From the IMG/VR virus record IMGVR_UViG_3300024339_000093, positions 1 through 22,141 of that record: a stretch of 22,141 bases of DNA, one strand, 5' to 3'. The notes under the pieces were generated by a model. That model ran no database searches, had not been told where the DNA came from, and saw only the letters and a list, made by a program, of their open reading frames with translations. This DNA is from a virus. Both the position numbers and the translations under genes were made by a program. The first letter of the stretch is position 1; each line of letters starts with the position of its first letter. Of this stretch, positions 1 to 20,471 are shown piece by piece.

Positions 1-1126
1 ATGCATCATCAGCACTACCTAAATAAAGGCTATCTCGAATCATCTGAGGCAAAACCGAAACCGACAACAAAAGATCAGAGCCAGCCCCCCATAACGTATG
101 CTTTATCCCTTTCTTAGTAATGATAATTTCATGACCGGAATCTTTGTTGATAACGGGAGCATCATAAAACCCATGATCAAATGCATGAGACAAGGCATCT
201 TTTGTTGACTCGATTACCCCACTTTTTATATCTATAACTGGCGCATTCTCAGGAACACGACTTGCTGAATCAGGCAATTGCCACCGCTTCACTTTTGGGT
301 TCATCTTCGAGGGCTGCAGCACCAGCTTCGAGCGATCTGCCTTCAGAAGATCCGGCCTGAATACAATTATGGATTTGGTTAACTTGCTATCGGAGGGATT
401 GTGGCCTATATTGCCTTTAGAAACGTTGGTGGAGCGAGCTGTGTCATCTCCACTCTTTGAACTAATAGTGTCCGTCCTCGTATTAGTGGCGTTTCGTCCT
501 TCCTCCTTCTCAAAAGCAGTAAGCAGCCAAGTCTTTGCTGCACCATTCCAAGCAAGACGCACAGAGACAAAATGGTCATCAGTCTCTAACCTTATCCTAT
601 TCTTTGTTTTTGAAACAACAGACATGAACTGAAGGATTCTTGGCAGAGCATCAATCACTCCCGGATGGTATTTAACAAGTTTCGACAGCCCATAACCGTC
701 ACTTTTACCAGTACCTTCCTGACCCCAGACTAAGTCAATATCACCAATCTCAGGGTGATATAGGGCTGCGATAGCCTCACCATTACGCTCTTTTTTCAGC
801 CGCGCGATAGCACCAGCAGGATTATGCCGGTACTCACGGTGAATAGGGCCAAAATCACCATCAGCAGGCAATTGCCACCGCTTCACTTTTGAGTTCGTCT
901 TCGAGGGCTGCAGCACCAGCTTCGAGCGATCTGCCTTCAGAAGATCCGGCCTGAATACAATTATGGATTTGGTTAACTTGCTATCGGAGGGGTTGTGACC
1001 TATATTGTTAACACCTGTGGATGGTTGCGCTGCGAACGATTCGGACGTTTGCGAGACGCTACCTTCTGGTATTGCACTTGGCGCGGAGCGAACCTTCCAC
1101 ATGGTCTTAAAAGAAATAATACGCAT
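1..1126 (-). CDS. MuF-associated polymorphic toxin-like protein (PBECR1-type nuclease plus LPD3-like domain), 3' end cut off
   Basis: An open frame of 375 codons runs off the left edge. The start ATG overlaps the stop of the MuF gene (TAATG), so translation is probably coupled. Residues about 90-207 look like the phage Barnase-EndoU-ColicinE5/D-RelE-like nuclease family (PBECR1). Visible signatures are IHREYRHNPAGAI, GDIDLVWG, GLSKLVKYHP, ETDDHFVSVRL and KTWLLTAFEK. Residues about 297-375 resemble an LPD3-type domain (NKDSGHEIIITKKGIKHTL), which also occurs in the portal tail. A 47-residue linker is present twice, at residues 41-87 and 239-285, encoded by a 143-bp direct repeat. The family is thought to comprise RNA-cleaving toxins linked to phage head proteins. 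The function here is inferred. No immunity gene is visible; one could lie beyond the edge. Confidence 0.75.
   Translation of the reverse strand, partial: MRIISFKTMWKVRSAPSAIPEGSVSQTSESFAAQPSTGVNNIGHNPSDSKLTKSIIVFRPDLLKADRSKLVLQPSKTNSKVKRWQLPADGDFGPIHREYRHNPAGAIARLKKERNGEAIAALYHPEIGDIDLVWGQEGTGKSDGYGLSKLVKYHPGVIDALPRILQFMSVVSKTKNRIRLETDDHFVSVRLAWNGAAKTWLLTAFEKEEGRNATNTRTDTISSKSGDDTARSTNVSKGNIGHNPSDSKLTKSIIVFRPDLLKADRSKLVLQPSKMNPKVKRWQLPDSASRVPENAPVIDIKSGVIESTKDALSHAFDHGFYDAPVINKDSGHEIIITKKGIKHTLWGAGSDLLLSVSVLPQMIRDSLYLGSADDA
271..413. repeat. 143-bp direct repeat, copy 1 (within toxin-like gene)
   Basis: This matches 865-1007 with four mismatches in 143 bases (at 298, 303, 398 and 404), offset by 594 bp. 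The offset is a multiple of three, so both copies are read in the same frame. They encode the linker that precedes each toxin-type domain, ending in KVKRWQLP. Confidence 0.95.
865..1007. repeat. 143-bp direct repeat, copy 2 (within toxin-like gene)
   Basis: This is the partner of 271-413, about 97% identical and in frame. It encodes residues of about 41-87 of the minus-strand toxin-like protein, just before the PBECR1-type domain. Recombination between the copies would delete 594 bp and leave an intact frame that joins the N-terminus directly to the second domain. Confidence 0.95.
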
Positions 1127-3300
1127 TACTTTTTCCTTAAAATATTCTGAATGACCCGAGTGAACTCCGGGTCATGGTCTTTCTCAGGGATATCCAGACG
1201 AATCCAAGTCCCACGGCAATTGTGGACAACCACTCCCCCACGAATCACATAACTTTCATCATCATCAACCCCGAAGTTGTACAGCCTGCGATTCCTAACA
1301 TTTCTCCGAGTCACCTTTTCAACAGTCAAACTACCAAACTTGTACTCACCAGAATGGTTCATTGCCAATCTAGCAACAGACTCAGAAACTGCAGAAGGGT
1401 TACTTTTTGCAAAAGCGGCATCAAACCTCATAGTTGTCCAACCAAGATCACTCATTTCTGCATCACGCGCTTCATCCCTGCCAGCATTTAACCTCCCATG
1501 CCATGGCGCACCATCGATTTCTACACATATCATTTCATTAGGCAGTGCAATGTCTGCGAAAAAACGCTTAGGACGACCAAGCGAATCAACAGAATTTCTA
1601 ATTACGGGGTGCTGCAGAGATACCGATAACCCAAGTCTACTCAACATATCCCCAATATTTTTTTCAGATACAGAAGGGGTGTAGTTTTTTGTACCATTGG
1701 ATAATGCACTTTTCCTTCTAACCTCTGCTGTTTGCATGTGCGAGTACCCACGCTCTTTCATAACAGCTCTTCCTGAAGAGGTTAGCTCTCTACGCTGCTC
1801 CACAGTCAACTTACTCATTCGATGACAGTTTCCAGCAGAAGCGGCCTGTTTCGCCGCCTCAAGCGCAACTGGATCATTGGTTGAGAATTGATTTTTTCCA
1901 TTCTTCGGGTGGCATGCAGCAGAACAATAAGTCACATGGTCATGCTTAATATTTATGAACTCTTTTCCGCACGTAGGACATATCTTGCAGACAGCCACAA
2001 CGCTATCATTACAATTAATTTCACCAGCGGGAACCCACCCACGCTTAGTTAGAACCGGGTGCTCAGGTGTCATAGAAGGAATGCTACTTCTATTTTTGCC
2101 GTCAAAAGAGGCATGCAGCGTTACGACTTCCCCGGAATATATCTCGTCTTCCAGAACCCAATTCACCGCCCTAAACCTGCCTTTATGCGTCAGAACAAGA
2201 TCACCGATCATGATGTCGCTTATACATTTCCAGCCATCGGTCGTATAGATTGGGACCGTAGGATCAACAAAACAATGAGGGTGCACCGTTCCAGCAGGAA
2301 CCCACCAAGTCTCTGAGGCAGTACGGTCAACCATCCCCATCGGAGTGCGTTTGCGAGCAGCAGAAGACCGACCGACATTCGACTTGCCAATCCATACCTC
2401 CTTCGCGCCATCCTTATCACGCTTGGCAGGCGGTACTACGGTAAACACCAGCCCATCGATCGACCGACAGAACTTGCACGCACCGTCATACATCTCAAGA
2501 CGGCGTACCTTGGCCCCATCCGGCATAGAGGCAATGAACCCCTGCCCGAAATTCTCCCCCCCTTCAGTCAGAGCAATACGCCGCCAATCCCGGTTGAAAG
2601 TGCCGAAATCATCAAACAGTTTCGTTTGCAGAGAGGAGACCGCCTCAGCATGGGGGGTGCCGCTGAACTCGTCCTCCTGCCAGCCAATAACAGCCATACG
2701 CAACTTGGCCCGCACAGAGCTATGGAGGTTTGATACGTGTTCGGCGCACTTAATCTGACCGAAGCGGAGTGCCGCGTGCTGCGCTTTTTTCAACTGCACG
2801 CCCGCACGATAACCCCCTGCCTGATACGACACCTCAGCAACAAGGGCAGAAGCTGCAGCCTCGGAGATTTTATCCATCCGAGAGTTCACCCGCCCCATCA
2901 TCTGGGCCTTCGATACCAGCCATTCGGCCTCATCGATCAACACGTCCTCCGGGAGATACCGCTGGACGAGGTACTCCACAACCAGCATCCAGTCGTAGAG
3001 TTCGAACTTATTAGTCGGGAGGTTTTCGAGGTAGATTTTTACAGCCTGCAGCTCGGCACGTGACCAGCGAGGGTGAATATTTGGGGCTGTATCAACCGGC
3101 TTACGATCGCGCCCACGGTCACGGTGACCATTAATCCAATACATCAACTCCGACTGCAGGGAACCATGGCGGTCAAGGCCGTGATTTGTCCACTCCTCAA
3201 TAAGCTGCCGGATGAATGGAGATTCATGGGGTCGCCACACCCCGTCATCATCAAACGAATCGGCCTTGAGCAGATCAGAGGACAAGCAATGATCACACAT
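1126..3300 (-). CDS. MuF-type minor head/head morphogenesis protein interrupted by an intein
   Basis: This is a phage Mu gpF/SPP1 gp7-like minor capsid protein that acts at the portal during head assembly. The family motif near the C-terminus, HPHCRGTW, is split after HPH by a 352-residue intein. Splicing would leave an extein of about 372 residues. CKFCRSIDG and the helical region before it also fit the family. The ATG at 3300 overlaps the portal stop (TGATG) and has AAGGA six bases upstream. A GTG three bases earlier is possible but badly spaced. The position after portal is typical. The toxin-like gene starts on its stop codon. The N-terminus MCDHC is a possible metal-binding knuckle. The MuF call is strong; the splicing activity is inferred. 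Confidence 0.88.
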   Translation of the reverse strand: MCDHCLSSDLLKADSFDDDGVWRPHESPFIRQLIEEWTNHGLDRHGSLQSELMYWINGHRDRGRDRKPVDTAPNIHPRWSRAELQAVKIYLENLPTNKFELYDWMLVVEYLVQRYLPEDVLIDEAEWLVSKAQMMGRVNSRMDKISEAAASALVAEVSYQAGGYRAGVQLKKAQHAALRFGQIKCAEHVSNLHSSVRAKLRMAVIGWQEDEFSGTPHAEAVSSLQTKLFDDFGTFNRDWRRIALTEGGENFGQGFIASMPDGAKVRRLEMYDGACKFCRSIDGLVFTVVPPAKRDKDGAKEVWIGKSNVGRSSAARKRTPMGMVDRTASETWWVPAGTVHPHCFVDPTVPIYTTDGWKCISDIMIGDLVLTHKGRFRAVNWVLEDEIYSGEVVTLHASFDGKNRSSIPSMTPEHPVLTKRGWVPAGEINCNDSVVAVCKICPTCGKEFINIKHDHVTYCSAACHPKNGKNQFSTNDPVALEAAKQAASAGNCHRMSKLTVEQRRELTSSGRAVMKERGYSHMQTAEVRRKSALSNGTKNYTPSVSEKNIGDMLSRLGLSVSLQHPVIRNSVDSLGRPKRFFADIALPNEMICVEIDGAPWHGRLNAGRDEARDAEMSDLGWTTMRFDAAFAKSNPSAVSESVARLAMNHSGEYKFGSLTVEKVTRRNVRNRRLYNFGVDDDESYVIRGGVVVHNCRGTWIRLDIPEKDHDPEFTRVIQNILRKK
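1219..2274 (-). mobile_element. Intein with zinc-finger and Vsr/DUF559-like homing endonuclease
   Basis: The element covers residues 344-695, counted from the GTG at 3303. It begins with Cys (CFVDPTVPIYT) and ends in VVVHN followed by Cys, a normal splice junction. The HINT N-terminal block includes SDIMIGDLVLTHKGRFRAV, block B is TPEHPVLT, and the C-terminal block is DDESYVIRGGVVVHN. Between them lie a Cys-rich finger (CPTCGKEF then YCSAAC), a basic NUMOD-like stretch (NQFSTNDPVALEAAK), and a nuclease of the Vsr/DUF559 type with CVEIDGAPWHG, D/RD pairs and GWTTMRF. All key splicing residues (Cys1, block B Thr and His, penultimate His, terminal Asn, Cys+1) are present, so it should be splicing-competent. 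The nuclease also looks intact. Confidence 0.9.
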
Positions 3301-6143
3301 CACTTATCCTTCAGAATTAAATCGCGCTCATCGTCGGCGTTTTTGTCGTCCGCATCATCAGCATTGTCGGTGGTGTCTTTGGGATTATCAGCCTCCTGCG
3401 CACCCACAAAATGATGTTTTCCCGTAACCCGGTCCTTCAGGATAGCACCAGCCTCCCCATGGTCCACCACATCATAGCCACGCTCTGCCCTTTTCTTGTG
3501 GCCAAGGAACGAACCCCATGGAACGCCGACATTGCCGCTGTCGTGGGATACTGTGCAGCCGTCCTCACCATGTGCGAGCACGCGACCAGAACCAATACCT
3601 TGCTCGGGGTGGTTGAAGAAAATCTCATCATCAATACCAACCCCAAGATCATTGGCCTTCGCCAGAACATTATCACTGAGAGAGAAAAACATCTTACCGT
3701 CAGAGTCTCGTTGGACATCACGCAATAATTGGACTATATTGATATTAGACCTCAGTGCTTGAGCCGATGGATGCGTCCTCGGTGGCCCCTCTAAAGCGGG
3801 GGACTCGCTGGGGTCGTTTAATTCTATCGATGTGAGCGCATGCATGTTTTTTCTGCTCGCCCCATCAGTCAACTGATAATCCTTCACAGTCAACTTCACA
3901 CGATATAGCTTTCCTCCCATTTCAACAGAGGAGTAGAAGCGATGTACCGCTTTAACGTCCGAATTACCTTTGTTATCGGTATGAGATTCAGCCAACACAG
4001 CATGGCGAACAATATCTTCCGCTCCAGACAAAATCATCTTCAGGTCTGTAGACGTTTGCCCTTGCCACTTTGCGAGCTTCTTCCAATCTTGCCGAGTTAC
4101 AATAAACCCCCAGCCAGTATCATCGTTATGCACTCCATTCTTAGGCCATTTTTTCAAAAACGAAACAGCCTCAGAGCGTAACTCACGCAACCCCATATCA
4201 GTATTCTTTTTGCTGACAGAAATATTTACAACCTGAATGCTCTTTTTTTCAAGACCACTTCGCTCTCCGTAAGAGCAATACTTTCCGTCATCATCATGAC
4301 ACCCATTGGCCTTCAGTAGCCCGCCCTCGCCCCCCCGATCATCAAGAATGTCTGGCGAAACCACTCCAGAAGAGTCGGCTTTTCTAAGCGTTCCCGCCTC
4401 CTCTCCTCCTTCTCTACCATCGCCGCTCTCCGAGGGAACAGTCGCGCTTCCTCTGCCCGCATTACCGCTGCCTTTCTGCGACGAATCGCTCTCTTCTTTT
4501 TCCGAAGTTTTTTCGTGTGCATTTTCATCTTCTTCACCCTCCTGTTTGAAATCAGGATGCTGCTCTTCACCATCCAAATCAGCATCGTCCGGAACCTCCC
4601 CAGAAGCACCCTCTTCCGCACCCTCTTCCATCTGCTTTTCCTGCTGCCAGATAGTAGCCAAAGACGGATTGACAGGAGCCTCACCCCAACCCTCTTCTAA
4701 CGGCGCATACCCCTCTTGAGCACGCACCTCATTAACCGTGAGCACCGTCTTTTTCAGCTCGTGTTCTTTGTCCTGATCGGTATCGTCCATGCCGGTCCAG
4801 CGGAACACCCACTGCTCGCCAAACTCTTGGACTATGAAATCGGTATAGATGGACTCGAAATACCCCAACAGAGGCTTGAGTCCCTTATCCTTTGAATCTG
4901 CAATACGCTCGGCAGTATCGGACCCAGAAAGAGCAGACTTCGAAGAGCTAAACGACTCGAAATTAATCTCATCCGGGGCGATACCGTAGATGGCACAGAT
5001 CATCGAGGTCAGAAAAGTCATCCATTTAGAGAAGTACATCTCGTCGAACTCTTTACCGAAGTTCTCAAAAGATGCCTTCGACTCCTGATCCTTCGATATC
5101 ATGACGGGAAGAGTCCATGAGTTGTGCACACCCTTCACCATCGCATTCCAGTACCGCTTAAATGCCTGCAGGTCCGTCTCGTTGTATTCGCCAGACAAAT
5201 GCAGCATCCCCTTCGGGATCGCGTTATCAGAAAACCCCTTGATATTGAGAGTCATGGCATTAAGGAACCCGGTAACCACTCGGACCAGCAGCTCGGTCTC
5301 AGAGAGACCATAACCACCAGCATTTACATCACTACGGGGATTGCGAGGCTCGTAGATCAGATCTTCGAAACCATAGGCGGTGGAGATACGCCCCTGAATA
5401 ACCTGCAGGGCAAAAATATCTTCATCCCCCCGGTACCCTGTATCTGGACAAAGACGAATGGTCGCTCCATCAACAGCGTACAGGCCATCCAGCCCGAGCG
5501 AGCGATCGCGCTTGTACTCGGTCTCGATAGCCGCCGAATCCATAGACAATGTGTCACGAACCAGTTTAGCCATGAACGCACGCATATTGTCACGCTTGAG
5601 CCGCCTACGCTTGCGCGGATTGAACTCCCAGCCGTTATTCACCACGAACTGCTGCATCAGATTGACACTGCGCTTCTCGATATCTGTAATCTCGTGATCA
5701 GAATCCCGATGCCGGATAGCAAAACCGGTACCCTCTCGGGTCTCCTGAATGCGGCAAAATGCCTGCACCTGCCGAACCCGAGTCATAACAACCGCGCTCA
5801 ATACAGGAGTTTGGTCGACCATATTGCGCAACCCCTCAAATGTCATGGAACCGGGCCGCTCCATATAGTCACCCATCCGGGCCATCTGCCACTCATCCTG
5901 ATAAACCGACTGCATCCCCTTGTCTCCGGCATTTTTGGAGGGAAACGGGACGATGTTGGAGTATTCATTGGCCTTGAGAATATGAGGCTGTGAGGACATC
6001 TCTCTGTAAATCTCTTCAATCATCGGGGCCAAGCGAGCGACTTCAGAGCGGTCAACAGCAGCTTCCTGTATCTCGGACTGAGCATCAAAACGCTCATCCG
6101 CAGGAGCAGAATCATTAAAGGCGGTTCTTTGAGTATCGTTCAT
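3300..6143 (-). CDS. Phage portal protein with long C-terminal extension (LPD3-like and SH3-like domains)
   Basis: Residues about 95-500 form the portal core of the phage_portal family. Landmarks are DLIYEPRNPRSDVN (261-274), SETELLVRVVTGFLNA and YGIAPDEINF. Portals form the dodecameric ring through which DNA is packaged. At 947 residues this is much longer than the usual 400-550. After an acidic, low-complexity linker (about 505-600) comes a domain at 635-775 (DDTGWGFIVTRQDWKKL, VHRFYSSVEMGGKLYRVKLTV) that resembles LPD3-type polyvalent-protein domains and aligns by eye with the C-terminus of the toxin-like gene. A small beta-rich SH3-like module follows at about 830-915 (GRVLAHGEDGCTV, LGHKKRAE). 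The tail ends in Asp/Asn-rich sequence. The gene overlaps MuF by TGATG. The ribosome binding site is weak (GCGGA). Confidence 0.9.
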   Translation of the reverse strand: MNDTQRTAFNDSAPADERFDAQSEIQEAAVDRSEVARLAPMIEEIYREMSSQPHILKANEYSNIVPFPSKNAGDKGMQSVYQDEWQMARMGDYMERPGSMTFEGLRNMVDQTPVLSAVVMTRVRQVQAFCRIQETREGTGFAIRHRDSDHEITDIEKRSVNLMQQFVVNNGWEFNPRKRRRLKRDNMRAFMAKLVRDTLSMDSAAIETEYKRDRSLGLDGLYAVDGATIRLCPDTGYRGDEDIFALQVIQGRISTAYGFEDLIYEPRNPRSDVNAGGYGLSETELLVRVVTGFLNAMTLNIKGFSDNAIPKGMLHLSGEYNETDLQAFKRYWNAMVKGVHNSWTLPVMISKDQESKASFENFGKEFDEMYFSKWMTFLTSMICAIYGIAPDEINFESFSSSKSALSGSDTAERIADSKDKGLKPLLGYFESIYTDFIVQEFGEQWVFRWTGMDDTDQDKEHELKKTVLTVNEVRAQEGYAPLEEGWGEAPVNPSLATIWQQEKQMEEGAEEGASGEVPDDADLDGEEQHPDFKQEGEEDENAHEKTSEKEESDSSQKGSGNAGRGSATVPSESGDGREGGEEAGTLRKADSSGVVSPDILDDRGGEGGLLKANGCHDDDGKYCSYGERSGLEKKSIQVVNISVSKKNTDMGLRELRSEAVSFLKKWPKNGVHNDDTGWGFIVTRQDWKKLAKWQGQTSTDLKMILSGAEDIVRHAVLAESHTDNKGNSDVKAVHRFYSSVEMGGKLYRVKLTVKDYQLTDGASRKNMHALTSIELNDPSESPALEGPPRTHPSAQALRSNINIVQLLRDVQRDSDGKMFFSLSDNVLAKANDLGVGIDDEIFFNHPEQGIGSGRVLAHGEDGCTVSHDSGNVGVPWGSFLGHKKRAERGYDVVDHGEAGAILKDRVTGKHHFVGAQEADNPKDTTDNADDADDKNADDERDLILKDK

Positions 6144-7140: not shown

Positions 7141-7298
7141 TACAGCTTCCCCCGTTCAATCAAAATATCAGGAGAAACACCACACATCTCTGCCAATTCT
7201 CGGTAATCAGTAGGCATCCGGTTATAACGCCGCCTCCAGTAGAACCTTCGGATAGCACGCCACGGTGATGGGAACCCCACCAGCAAGAAATCAACCAT
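7140..7298 (-). CDS. 52-residue HTH-like small protein
   Basis: This small gene is locked between two others by overlapping codons: its ATG overlaps the stop of the Dam-like gene (TGATG) and its TAG overlaps the GTG of the ASCH-like gene. GGAGG lies 7 bases before the ATG. The N-terminal half is aromatic and Arg-rich (SPWRAIRRFYWRRRYNRM), the rest looks like a helix-turn-helix (DYRELAEMCGVSPDILIERG). Function unknown. The tight coupling on both sides is the main support for it being real. Confidence 0.65.
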   Translation of the reverse strand: MVDFLLVGFPSPWRAIRRFYWRRRYNRMPTDYRELAEMCGVSPDILIERGKL

Positions 7299-7798
7299 CA
7301 AACACCCTCCATAAAAACACCACGATCACGCAGCTTCCACAAAGCCTCAGAACACTCTTCACCGCAGGCAAACATTACGGTCCCGGCACCAGAACGACCC
7401 TTCTTGTGCTCGTTCTCAAGCCCCGGTACAAAATCAATTCGACCCGACAGAAACAGTGTCCTTTTCGCCTTCTTCATCGCCTCCTGACACCAAGAGGCAT
7501 CGGTACGACTGAATACCATGGCAATACCGTTGTTATGATCGAAAAACCGGCGCATCCAAAAGCTGGTATCGACACCGTATGGTGGATTCATCCAGACCCG
7601 ACCAAACCACTCCTTCTGCAGCCCGTTATCAAAAACGGTGTACTTGGTGGTGGCAGGAATGAAAGACTCCATATCGTAGGGAGAAGCCGGATCAAGATCG
7701 AATTGCAACCCCAGCTCATCGAATACCCACGCAGGCGTATACCATTCAACACTCTTTCTTGCGTGCATCTTGCGGGAGACACCAAACATTCCGCTCAT
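7298..7798 (-). CDS. Phage DNA N6-adenine methyltransferase (Dam family of phages)
   Basis: The 166-residue protein matches the phage DNA N-6-adenine-methyltransferase family: VEWYTPAWVFDELG at the N-terminus, FDLDPASP, and the catalytic WMNPPYG, with a later GRIDFVPG segment. The family methylates adenine and commonly protects phage DNA from host restriction. The chosen ATG at 7798 overlaps the upstream stop (ATGA). The frame extends further upstream to 7891, but that part overlaps the preceding gene and is not conserved-looking. It is the second methyltransferase in the operon, alongside the ParB-fused enzyme. Confidence 0.85.
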   Translation of the reverse strand: MSGMFGVSRKMHARKSVEWYTPAWVFDELGLQFDLDPASPYDMESFIPATTKYTVFDNGLQKEWFGRVWMNPPYGVDTSFWMRRFFDHNNGIAMVFSRTDASWCQEAMKKAKRTLFLSGRIDFVPGLENEHKKGRSGAGTVMFACGEECSEALWKLRDRGVFMEGV

Positions 7799-8250
7799 TT
7801 CTCGAATAGACCCACAACCTTGCGGTAGATGTCCTTTATAGAGACCCATGAAATCGGTACAGACAGGGAGTAATCTCCCGCCCCACCGCACTCCTCACAA
7901 AACTCACCATCAATCACCCCCGAATCGCAATGCTCGCAAGCCAATATTACAGTTTCCTTAAACTCTCCGGAGAGAGCCTTTTTTGCACCATTTTCAGCCG
8001 TTAACTCGGACGGCAAAACAGTGTGGCTATCGGGCACCCGAAACCAACCCATGCGATTGGCAGCGTGCTCTTCCAGAGAGGAGAGGTCACCGTCAATACT
8101 GGTGATCCAGACATAAACATCAGGAGGAAGTATTTTTAGTAGTTTTGTGATGGCGAACTCATCCGCATCATCACTGCGAATAATCAGAATAGATCCGGGC
8201 TTCAGGGCAGAGGGATCAATCACAGAGGCATTATCTAAAATATTACTCAT
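7795..8250 (-). CDS. Hypothetical protein with C-terminal zinc ribbon
   Basis: 151 residues, not recognised. The N-terminal half is a possible Rossmann-like alpha/beta segment (SILIIRSDDADEFAITKLLK, DVYVWITSIDGDLSSLE). The C-terminal third has paired CEHC and CEEC knuckles with GGAG after them, as in DnaJ-type zinc ribbons. It overlaps the 81-residue gene upstream by 8 bases and the Dam-like gene downstream by ATGA. Confidence 0.65.
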   Translation of the reverse strand: MSNILDNASVIDPSALKPGSILIIRSDDADEFAITKLLKILPPDVYVWITSIDGDLSSLEEHAANRMGWFRVPDSHTVLPSELTAENGAKKALSGEFKETVILACEHCDSGVIDGEFCEECGGAGDYSLSVPISWVSIKDIYRKVVGLFEK

Positions 8251-8485
8251 CGATCAAAAACCCGTTATCTTCAAAATCGTAATAGATAAGCTCAAGACCC
8301 GAGTTATCCATCATATTGAGGGCATCCTGCACCGTTGTGCCGGTGGCGCAATGTGTGCCCAGAACGTGGGTGACCATCCGTTTAATGAATTGGTCCGATG
8401 CAGCATACGAGCGAGCAAGACGATCGATGACCTCCTCCCTGTTATCGTTATTTACCTTCAACATTTCAATATTTTCAATCGACAT
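8243..8485 (-). CDS. Small hypothetical protein after terminase
   Basis: About 80 residues, acidic, not recognised. Its ATG at 8485 overlaps the stop of the large terminase gene (TGATG). A GTG one codon earlier is also in frame. The sequence is predicted mainly helical with an acidic C-terminus (LIYYDFEDNGFLIDE). In this position phages often encode head-completion or small unknown proteins, but nothing in the sequence points to a particular one. Confidence 0.6.
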   Translation of the reverse strand: MSIENIEMLKVNNDNREEVIDRLARSYAASDQFIKRMVTHVLGTHCATGTTVQDALNMMDNSGLELIYYDFEDNGFLIDE

Positions 8486-11968: not shown

Positions 11969-12277
11969 TTAATGCACCGTCTCGTTGTGTTTGGCCCTAG
12001 ATTCCTTCAAGGCTCTATTAACCGAATCGGTACTAACCTGAACATTGATATTTAGGGAGACGATTAATCTTTGAGATTTCTCTCCCGGCTTGTAATCAGG
12101 GATAAATACCAATCCGCGTTCAACCAAGTCCATGAACCCACTCCAGATCTCGGCATGAGTCACACTACCGGGGGGAATACCTGAAGCAATCTGGTCGATC
12201 AGAATGCGCACATACCCATTGTCGAATGGCATCGAAGACTTATCATCTGGTGATTTATTCGACTCCCAATCAAACAT
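11969..12277 (-). CDS. Hypothetical protein overlapping the ParB-methyltransferase
   Basis: 102 residues, not recognised. The ATG (MFDWESNKSPD) overlaps the end of the methyltransferase gene by 8 bases, which supports this start over the longer in-frame extension. The middle looks globular (NGYVRILIDQIASG, HAEIWSGFMDLVERGLVFIPD) and could be a winged-helix-like fold. The C-terminus is basic. Confidence 0.6.
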   Translation of the reverse strand: MFDWESNKSPDDKSSMPFDNGYVRILIDQIASGIPPGSVTHAEIWSGFMDLVERGLVFIPDYKPGEKSQRLIVSLNINVQVSTDSVNRALKESRAKHNETVH

Positions 12278-13640
12278 CTTTGGCCTCCTCCCAACTAGCA
12301 GTGAGGTCATCGACAATCTTCTTGGGGAAAGTCGCGCCAGTGAGAGCGTGTACAGGTGCCCTACCGGTGTATTTGTAGTACCGGGCACAGATCACATCAA
12401 CGAACCGGGGATCCAACTCCATCAACCGGGAAGACATGCCCATCCGCTCTGCAGCCATTAAGGTGGTACCAGAGCCACCGAAACCATCAATGACGATATC
12501 CCCCCTACGGGCAGAGTTCCGGAGTAGTCGCTCCCAGAGGGCTACCGGCTTCATTGTGGGATGAAGTGGACTTCGCTTGGGCTTGGGACAAAAGATCATC
12601 GATGTCTCAGCCTCCTCAACCACTGTACTCCCATCGATATAGATCACTTTATCGTCAGAACGGATCGCATATCGACCATCTGGCATCTTCTCAAACGGCG
12701 GGTATTCCCCAACGTCTTGAACTGTAATGTTTTTCCTGCCCCCGTACCAGCGGTGTGCGGCCCCTGTCTTCCATCCGTAGAGAATAGGCTCAGAGATAGG
12801 CTGGTAGTCCAAACGCCCCAGCACGAACTGATCCTTGCGCCACGTGAGGCATCCGGAGAGTTTGAACCCCGCCTCAATGAATGCACTACGGAAATTGATA
12901 CCCTCAGAGTCCGAGTGAGAAACATACATCGGCGCACCGGGCTTCATATTCAAGTAGGAGCAGCTATAGAAATCGAGCAGAAACTGCCGGAAGTCACCGT
13001 CCCCCATATTGTCATTCTCGATCTTTCCGGCAAGATCTGATTCGTAATTGACGTTATAGGGAGGATCACAGAGCTGAATGTCGGCCTTCTCCCCATCCAT
13101 CAGAGTCATCCAGTCATCGGATGTGGTAGAACTCCCGCACATCAACCGGTGTGGCCCCAGCACCCAGACATCTCCTAACTCCGAATGAGCCTCGTCTGGA
13201 ATGTCCGGCACATCATCAGGGTTTTTGTCTTCAGGATCCAAGAGATCCGGATCCAAAAGATCTGTGAGATCGTCACCAAACCCCAGAAGCTCAAGATCGA
13301 AATCAGCCAGATGAAGATCCGCTATTTCTAACTTTAGTAGATCGTTATCCCATTCTGCCCAATTTGCAGACTGATTGGCGAGCAGCCGAAAAGCCTTTAT
13401 TTGAGTATCTGTAAGCTCATCTGCGAGAGCAACCGGAATGGTTTTTAGCCCTAACACCTTGGCAGCCTTCAGCCGAAGGTGTCCATCAACAACAGTGCCA
13501 TCAGACTTAGCCACAACAGGGATTCTGAAACCAAACTCTTTGATTGCAGCGACCATCTGGTCAACGACAGCATCATTCTTGCGAGGATTTCTCACATAAG
13601 CTACTAATTTATCAATCTCCCACTCTTGTACATCAAGCAT
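12270..13640 (-). CDS. ParB-like domain fused to DNA adenine methyltransferase
   Basis: A 456-residue phage modification enzyme. Residues about 8-95 are a ParB/sulfiredoxin-like domain (NPRKND, VVDGHLRLKAAKVLGL). An acidic linker follows. The methyltransferase has catalytic DPPY (192-195) ahead of the SAM-binding FGGSGTT (387-393), the order of the beta class; DPPY suggests N6-adenine. LHPTMKP precedes the SAM motif. This architecture is widespread in proteobacterial phages and is believed to protect phage DNA or mark it. The ATG at 13640 with GGAG upstream fits the usual N-terminus; a GTG at 13688 would add 16 residues with no clear ribosome binding site. Confidence 0.9.
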   Translation of the reverse strand: MLDVQEWEIDKLVAYVRNPRKNDAVVDQMVAAIKEFGFRIPVVAKSDGTVVDGHLRLKAAKVLGLKTIPVALADELTDTQIKAFRLLANQSANWAEWDNDLLKLEIADLHLADFDLELLGFGDDLTDLLDPDLLDPEDKNPDDVPDIPDEAHSELGDVWVLGPHRLMCGSSTTSDDWMTLMDGEKADIQLCDPPYNVNYESDLAGKIENDNMGDGDFRQFLLDFYSCSYLNMKPGAPMYVSHSDSEGINFRSAFIEAGFKLSGCLTWRKDQFVLGRLDYQPISEPILYGWKTGAAHRWYGGRKNITVQDVGEYPPFEKMPDGRYAIRSDDKVIYIDGSTVVEEAETSMIFCPKPKRSPLHPTMKPVALWERLLRNSARRGDIVIDGFGGSGTTLMAAERMGMSSRLMELDPRFVDVICARYYKYTGRAPVHALTGATFPKKIVDDLTASWEEAKDV

Positions 13641-13716
13641 TACATGCTCCACTGTTATATGCGGCAGACAATGCTCTGCCAGACACACTGATAATTCGCT
13701 CCACTACTTCATCCAT
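13633..13716 (-). CDS. Possible 27-residue leader peptide before the methyltransferase
   Basis: An ATG-started frame (MDEVVERIISVSGRALSAAY and seven more residues) begins 6 bases after the zinc-ribbon gene and stops just past the methyltransferase ATG. Such an arrangement could couple translation. AGGA lies 10 bases before its start. Length and lack of homology make it doubtful. Confidence 0.3.
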   Translation of the reverse strand: MDEVVERIISVSGRALSAAYNSGACNA

Positions 13717-19661: not shown

Positions 19662-20471
19662 ATGAACCAACCTGAACTAGCTAGAATTTACTTTCACTCA
19701 GGAACTAAAGAGGGGATCAGAGAGGCCAAAATCGCACTAAGTAGCATTCAGGCAACCTCCTTTCTTCGAGAGGCATTAAGTTATGCCTGTAGTAAAATTG
19801 AAGGCATAGACTCTTTAGGGGTATATATCCTGCTGGGTGCAGATAAGAATGCATATATTGGAGAGACAGAGAGTCTCTGTGAACGCCTCAAACACCATCA
19901 CAGTAAGGATGAGCTGAGTTTTTGGGAAGAAACAATCATCCTTACCGGAAAAGATGACTGGCTAACTAAAAGCCATATACGATACATAGAATCTGAACTC
20001 TTTAGGCGAGCAAAAAAAAGCGGCTGGAAACTGCACAACAAGAAGAACGCTGCAGTCAACGCTGGCAAACTGCCAGAAGCCGACAAAACCATTACAAAAA
20101 GATTCATCCAGCAAGCTGAAACTCTTGTCAGTATGCTGGGGTATGATCTCTTTGACAGCCAAGAGGAGACCCACAAGATAGAAGCCAACCTTTCAATGAA
20201 AGGCAACGAGTACGAAGCATACGCAAACCTAGACCTCAAAACCGGAATAGTCACTGTACTTAAAGACTCTAAAGCAAAAGTAACAGAGGCAGACACAACC
20301 CCTATTAGTGCCCGCAATAGAAGGATGGAGCTGATAGGTAACGAGACCCTCAAAAAAACAGCAGACAATCTTGTTTTTACCAAAAATACTTCATTTAAAT
20401 CAAAAAGTGCGGCAGCAGCAGTGGTTGCAGCACATAGCATTAATGGGCAAAAAAGCTGGAAGACTCTCTAA
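19662..20471 (+). CDS. GIY-YIG nuclease with DUF4357 domain
   Basis: 269 residues, starting 3 bases after cI, so it is probably expressed in the lysogen. The GIY-YIG core begins at GVYIL (53-57) and AYIGETE (64-70), followed by a conserved Arg (R75) and a Glu at 110 in YIESELFRR as the likely metal ligand. The C-terminus (RRMELIGNETLKK, FKSKSAAAAVVAAHSINGQK) is DUF4357. Known proteins of this architecture are poorly characterised. Placement in the immunity operon suggests lysogenic conversion or exclusion of other DNA, but that is inferred. Confidence 0.8.
   Translation: MNQPELARIYFHSGTKEGIREAKIALSSIQATSFLREALSYACSKIEGIDSLGVYILLGADKNAYIGETESLCERLKHHHSKDELSFWEETIILTGKDDWLTKSHIRYIESELFRRAKKSGWKLHNKKNAAVNAGKLPEADKTITKRFIQQAETLVSMLGYDLFDSQEETHKIEANLSMKGNEYEAYANLDLKTGIVTVLKDSKAKVTEADTTPISARNRRMELIGNETLKKTADNLVFTKNTSFKSKSAAAAVVAAHSINGQKSWKTL

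What the first reader, a model, noticed from the sequence alone, without database searches (positions are those of the whole stretch)
1..1126. Two toxin-type domains separated by a 143-bp in-frame repeat: a toxin cassette exchange footprint?
The gene after MuF carries PBECR1-like and LPD3-like domains, each preceded by the same 47-residue linker. The linker DNA copies are about 97% identical and 594 bp apart, in frame. In polymorphic toxins, new toxin modules are placed next to old ones through shared linker DNA. Here that would give an N-terminus, linker, domain 1, linker, domain 2 chain. Recombination between repeats would remove domain 1 neatly. That these are interchangeable cassettes is inference.
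Basis: partly seen in the sequence, partly recalled or inferred. Interest (0 to 1): 0.8.

Follow-up and report, generated by a model that had tools for sequence, protein, structure and literature searches.

The report
Repeated cleavage tags between phage domains
A phage gene for a large protein, probably packed in the virus head and injected into bacteria, carries the same short segment before successive domains, and that segment looks like a cutting tag for the phage's own head protease, so the duplicated DNA seems to mark domains added together with their release site.

Summary
In detail: a 143-bp in-frame direct repeat (97%, spacing 594 bp = 198 codons) precedes a PBECR1 domain and an LPD3 domain. 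Overlapping contigs show that the gene continues past the window edge: a third, 74-bp copy follows LPD3, then DUF6900 x2, WGR and a C-terminal ADP-ribosyltransferase (about 2060 aa). It is a phage polyvalent protein in the head operon, not a secreted polymorphic toxin; no immunity gene was recognised. The repeat is more than a linker. It holds two [LM]xK|[AS] motifs, which match the inferred site of this phage lineage's head protease: enriched in scaffold, protease, portal and cargo N-termini, not in terminase or adaptor, and anchored by a deposited capsid homologue that starts exactly after K|S. Identity of the third copy ends at its LLK|A; that copy matches the N-terminal tag of stand-alone cargo genes in relatives (profile E 2e-6). 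Best reading: domains joined in frame, each behind a processing tag, by recombination at the tag DNA. No sampled relative has a one-linker variant; relatives carry other cargo or none there, and one contig has an insertion element in LPD3. Cleavage and domain exchange are inferred, not shown. LPD3 is not shown to be a toxin.

The parts
1..1126 (-). 5' part (375 codons) of the polyvalent-protein gene after MuF; continues past the left edge to about 2060 aa
   Evidence: ORF; continuation in L002 and L064; start overlaps the MuF stop, TAATG
865..1007 (-). tag/linker copy 1 (47 aa) with motifs LTK|S (K codon 968-970) and LLK|A (K codon 935-937)
414..864 (-). [quoted passage not shown]
271..413 (-). 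tag/linker copy 2 (47 aa) with motifs LTK|S (K codon 374-376) and LLK|A (K codon 341-343)
1..270 (-). LPD3 module, cut by the window edge (complete in L002); the contig L005 leaves phage sequence at about 112-117 for an insertion-element end
1126..3303 (-). MuF minor head protein with an intein; N-terminal motif DLLK|ADSFDDDGVW (K codon 3265-3267)
   Evidence: homology to MuF relatives; intein C-terminal model; motif
3300..6143 (-). portal protein with its own LPD3 (Pfam match 3867-4190), predicted cut sites before it (K codons 4380-4382, 4311-4313) and after it (3657-3659), and a portal N-terminal site (5973-5975)

Best explanation
The gene encodes a phage polyvalent protein that is probably packaged in the head and injected. 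The repeated linker is a processing tag with two cleavage motifs, LTK|S and LLK|A, for the phage's own head maturation protease. During head maturation the protease would cut the chain there and separate the PBECR1 unit, the LPD3 unit and the rest. The tag derives from the N-terminal tag of stand-alone cargo genes; copy 3 still looks like such an N-terminus. Domains were joined upstream of it, in frame, by recombination at tag DNA, each keeping a tag, which left the 97% repeat. Shown: the repeat, the third copy, the whole architecture, a protease gene in the same phage, motif enrichment, and profile similarity of copy 3 to cargo N-termini. Inferred: cleavage, packaging, order of events, exchangeability.
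For: Motif [LIVMF]xK[AS]: head proteins of this phage 38 vs 21.8 expected (2 of 500 shuffles reach it), tail 11 vs 8.7, non-virion 6 vs 6.1. Six isolates: scaffold 31 vs 3.7, protease 29 vs 4.3, portal 14 vs 7.1, terminase 4 vs 8.2, adaptor 1 vs 2.7. A homologous capsid protein is deposited both as 463 aa and as 439 aa starting at S25, in register with K31|A32 here. Head maturation protease phrog_1028 E 2e-31 and major head protein in the sibling contig. Sites avoid Pfam domain interiors: 3 of 55 vs 12.3 expected, P 0.001; control K[AS] without hydrophobic P3 25 of 126 vs 27.9. 8 of 12 cargo proteins vs 6 of 40 controls have a site in the first 30 residues, P 0.001. Copy 3 found by a profile of other cargo N-termini, 27.7 bits, best decoy 9.8. 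L009 carries the twin-site tag twice in one 586-aa protein.
Against: No cleavage was observed. The motif is short; inside one 47-aa tag two sites would occur by chance about once in 100 (estimate from the densities). The three copies are duplicates, so they are not independent evidence. A profile of relatives' portal-side twin-site tags did not detect copies 1-2. The MuF/cargo class as a whole is only mildly enriched in isolates (23 vs 17.8). I chose the motif after seeing part of these data; the isolate counts and the capsid anchor were obtained afterwards.
Confidence: 0.6

Rival explanations
1. Cassette exchange only: the repeat is a neutral linker that serves as the recombination site for adding, swapping or deleting modules, as in polymorphic toxins; it has no processing role.
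For: In-frame spacing of 594 and 678 bp; module borders at the repeat; tandem PBECR1 with three linker copies in L079; other modules in relatives.
Against: Motifs in the linker match the head-protease motif and identity of copy 3 ends at LLK|A. No variant with a swapped or missing module was found.
Confidence: 0.22
2. The repeat is a recent duplication or gene-conversion product without function; its likeness to protease sites is chance.
For: Only four differences between copies 1 and 2, and no read-level data.
Against: Three copies, each between modules, in frame, shared by separate assemblies; a similar repeated tag, diverged in sequence, in the relative L009; copy 3 similar to cargo N-termini.
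Confidence: 0.08
3. The repeat is a head-targeting (packaging) signal for each domain rather than a cleavage site, or it is both.
For: The same element stands at the N-terminus of stand-alone cargo genes; T4 propeptides both target proteins to the prohead core and are cut off (PMC10052503).
Against: One targeting signal per chain would suffice, so three copies before internal domains are better explained by cutting; untested.
Confidence: 0.1

Closest known systems
Phage polyvalent proteins (Iyer et al. 2017, PMC5512222)
   Same: Large multidomain chain in a head-gene cluster with PBECR1, LPD3 and an ADP-ribosyltransferase; that paper defined PBECR and LPD domains and reported strong domain mosaicism in Helicobacter phages, LPD3 included.
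   Different: No peptidase domain was detected in the chain here; a near-identical DNA-level tag repeat at the domain borders was not a theme of the passages I read.
Head proteins cut by prohead proteases in T4, phiKZ and SPN3US (PMC10052503)
   Same: A phage protease matures portal, capsid and internal head proteins at a short motif; several motifs can lie in one propeptide.
   Different: Motif is [LM]xK|[AS], not AxE; the sites lie between effector domains, not only in N-terminal propeptides.
Bacterial polymorphic toxins with shared linkers (from general knowledge)
   Different: No secretion leader or recognised immunity gene; the modules are N-terminal and internal in a head-operon protein.
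L079 (IMGVR_UViG_2838118685_000010)
   Same: Linker three times around PBECR1 modules, in frame.
   Different: There the PBECR1 module itself is duplicated (95%); the linker is a different sequence.

Membership tests
Phage polyvalent proteins | Several unrelated domains in one chain, among those defined for the class | tested here: met
   PBECR1, LPD3, WGR, ADP-ribosyltransferase
Phage polyvalent proteins | Encoded among virion genes | tested here: met
   Between MuF/portal and protease/capsid
Phage polyvalent proteins | Transfer into the host cell | not testable with these tools
   Needs virion proteomics and an injection assay
Polymorphic toxins | Immunity gene next to the toxin module | tested here: not met
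   Downstream 170-aa gene has no Pfam match, next is NUDIX; PADLOC no hit. An unknown immunity family cannot be excluded.
Polymorphic toxins | Secretion leader and C-terminal toxin | tested here: not met
   Chain starts MRIISFKTMWKV in the head operon; PBECR1 is near the N-terminus. No dedicated signal-peptide predictor was run.
Substrates of a head maturation protease | A head protease encoded by the same phage | tested here: met
   phrog_1028 E 2e-31 in the 48-kb contig that overlaps this gene through L004
Substrates of a head maturation protease | Cleavage motif enriched in head proteins and present in the linker | tested here: met
Substrates of a head maturation protease | Observed cleavage | not testable with these tools
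   Needs mass spectrometry
PBECR1 RNase | Family profile and conserved polar residues | tested here: met
   E 4e-10; the near-invariant H37 and invariant H67 and T116 of the 40-sequence alignment are kept here
PBECR1 RNase | BECR fold | tested here: inconclusive
   Good model (pLDDT 81) but no PDB match better than E 0.3; RelE toxins and a CdiA toxin are among the weak top matches
LPD3 as a toxin domain | Known toxic or catalytic activity | tested here: inconclusive
   Fold model matches LPD3-annotated phage proteins only; PDB matches weak; not in the list of probably enzymatic LPDs in PMC5512222

The most novel reading that the evidence does not exclude
This phage lineage builds its injected effectors as a modular polyprotein: a domain placed behind a duplicated head-protease tag is packaged in one chain and then released individually, so the tag DNA is both the recombination joint that adds or removes effectors and the site that frees them.
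Probability: 0.35. Interest if true: 0.7.

Novelty: new variant of a known kind. Interest (0 to 1): 0.48.

Why it matters
How polyvalent proteins without their own peptidase are separated into working parts, and how they gain and lose domains, is open. A DNA repeat that is at once the in-frame joint and the protease site would answer both with one element, and it predicts exact cut positions that ordinary virion mass spectrometry on existing isolates can test.

Tried and rejected
Profile of relatives' portal-side twin-site tags against the linker: no hit, so copies 1-2 are not claimed as homologues on that basis. Linker alone against the ORFs of the loci then held: nothing significant; the relative L100 shows PSKKNPRVSRWQ just before its PBECR1 (linker: PSKMNPKVKRWQ), kept only as a lead. 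Linker DNA in IMG/VR: only contigs of the same phage. DNA search in GenBank phages: none. Insertion-element end in plasmids: none. Short window matches in the gammaproteobacterial MAG that holds the element: no repeats around them, so no CRISPR spacers. LPD3 fold against PDB: weak NTF2-like matches only, E 0.004 or worse, TM about 0.3. Portal LPD3 as the recent source of the second LPD3: similarity only at E 0.002. PADLOC: no hit.

Full report
Observation. The window's first gene (minus strand, 1126 to the edge) holds a 143-bp direct repeat at 865-1007 and 271-413, 97% identical, 594 bp = 198 codons apart. PBECR1 and LPD3 follow the two copies and pass Pfam's cut-offs. The copies differ at four bases, two of them silent, and the same copy-specific differences are in two sibling contigs from other metagenome datasets, so this is not an assembly artefact. 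Another sibling, a 48,167-bp contig, begins inside the third copy, as expected where an assembler breaks at a repeat.

What lies past the edge. L002 and L064 continue the gene: LPD3 is completed, then come a third copy of the repeat (74 bp, 96-99% identical), a long part with two DUF6900 and WGR, and a C-terminal ADP-ribosyltransferase. The chain is about 2060 aa (a composite length: N-part from L002, C-part from L064, 99.6% identical where they overlap). It starts in the stop codon of the MuF gene (TAATG) and lies between portal/MuF and, further on, head protease, scaffold and capsid genes. The next genes are a 170-aa protein without Pfam match and a NUDIX cargo protein; no immunity gene was recognised.

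The linker is a tag. Each 47-aa copy contains LTK|S and, 11 residues on, LLK|A. The motif [LIVMF]xK[AS] is enriched in this phage's head proteins but not in its tail or non-virion proteins. In six isolates of the lineage it is strongly enriched in scaffold (31 vs 3.7 expected) and protease (29 vs 4.3), recurs at fixed places in portal and capsid, and is at or below expectation in terminase and adaptor; the consensus in scaffold and protease is [LM][AVLIT]K|[SA]L. The experimental anchor is the capsid: a homologous capsid protein is deposited as a 463-aa chain and as a 439-aa chain that starts at S25 of the former, in the same alignment column as K31|A32 here (that the short chain is the mature form is my reading of the deposited sequences). 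Across eleven cargo and portal proteins the sites avoid the interiors of Pfam domains (3 of 55 inside vs 12.3 expected, P 0.001), while K[AS] without a hydrophobic P3 does not. The portal protein of this window, which carries its own LPD3, has predicted sites before (K588, K611) and after (K829) it.

Origin of the tag. Stand-alone cargo proteins of the lineage begin with the same kind of element, for example MIVFLK|AQVAGYTRQDGTVVSPY (PHB04) and MMIVASSDFLK|SQVKGYTKKDGTVVKPY (this phage's NUDIX protein); 8 of 12 cargo proteins but 6 of 40 controls have a site in the first 30 residues. A profile of five such N-termini, built without this gene, finds copy 3 (MIVFRPDLLK|A..QIPGYTKSDGTVVKPH) at E 1.8e-6 (27.7 bits, best decoy 9.8), and more than 20 other ORFs in relatives. 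DNA identity of copy 3 with copies 1-2 runs from the end of the preceding domain (NIG) to LLKA and stops there. So copy 3 looks like the fused N-terminus of a former separate cargo gene, and its DNA was copied upstream with PBECR1 and LPD3 (inference). The relative L009 has the twin-site tag twice within one 586-aa protein, diverged in sequence. A limit: a profile of relatives' portal-side twin-site tags did not find copies 1-2.

Cassette exchange. The PBECR1 unit with its DDTAR..NI tail recurs in unrelated phages (BPP-1, Itty13 and many IMG/VR contigs), and in L079 an 84-bp linker occurs three times around two tandem PBECR1 copies. This makes modular gain plausible. But no one-linker or swapped variant of this gene was found in the collections scanned. 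The terminase relatives lack PBECR1 and carry other modules (RelA/SpoT, zeta toxin, inorganic pyrophosphatase, helicase or methylase) or none. The one variant seen, L005, leaves the phage sequence inside LPD3 at about window 112-117 for the end of an element that sits at contig ends with different flanks in gammaproteobacterial MAGs, so probably an insertion element and a host lead.

Verdict. The repeat is real and meaningful. The best-supported reading is a polyvalent protein assembled from domains that each follow a head-protease tag; cleavage, delivery and exchange remain inferred. The polymorphic-toxin reading fails on leader and immunity gene as far as they could be tested; LPD3 as a toxin is unproven. 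Polyvalent proteins, their mosaicism and prohead-protease cutting of injected proteins are all known (PMC5512222, PMC10052503); the combination in one duplicated DNA element is what is new here, if it holds.

Noticed in passing
window 1219-2274: Intein of 352 aa in the MuF protein (between GTVHPH and CRGTW) with an inserted DUF559/MTES_1575-type nuclease; the MuF relatives examined have no intein there.
   Followed up: partly
L005 1-121 (window about 112-117): End of a probable insertion element inside LPD3; the same end lies at contig ends with different flanks in gammaproteobacterial MAGs (DUYW01 from SI34jun09_200m, and JABGQL01), which hints at the host.
   Followed up: partly
window 7260-8462: About 1.2 kb with an N6-adenine methyltransferase gene and a second ORF is absent from L004 and L005, which have 89 bp of other sequence there.
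   Followed up: partly
L079 2899-4009: Unrelated phage contig with two tandem PBECR1 copies (95%) and three copies of an 84-bp linker, period 513 bp.
   Followed up: partly
L009 5615-7372: A 586-aa protein of a close terminase relative with the twin-site tag at residues 26/38 and again at 439/448, no Pfam domain.
   Followed up: partly
L070 6556-11814: Second large cargo protein of the same phage (inorganic pyrophosphatase plus helicase, 1753 aa) with predicted cut sites on both sides of the pyrophosphatase.
   Followed up: partly
window 12270-13688: ParB-like domain fused to an adenine-specific DNA methyltransferase.
   Followed up: no
window 19662-20471: Protein with GIY-YIG (below cut-off) and DUF4357 domains.
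   Followed up: no
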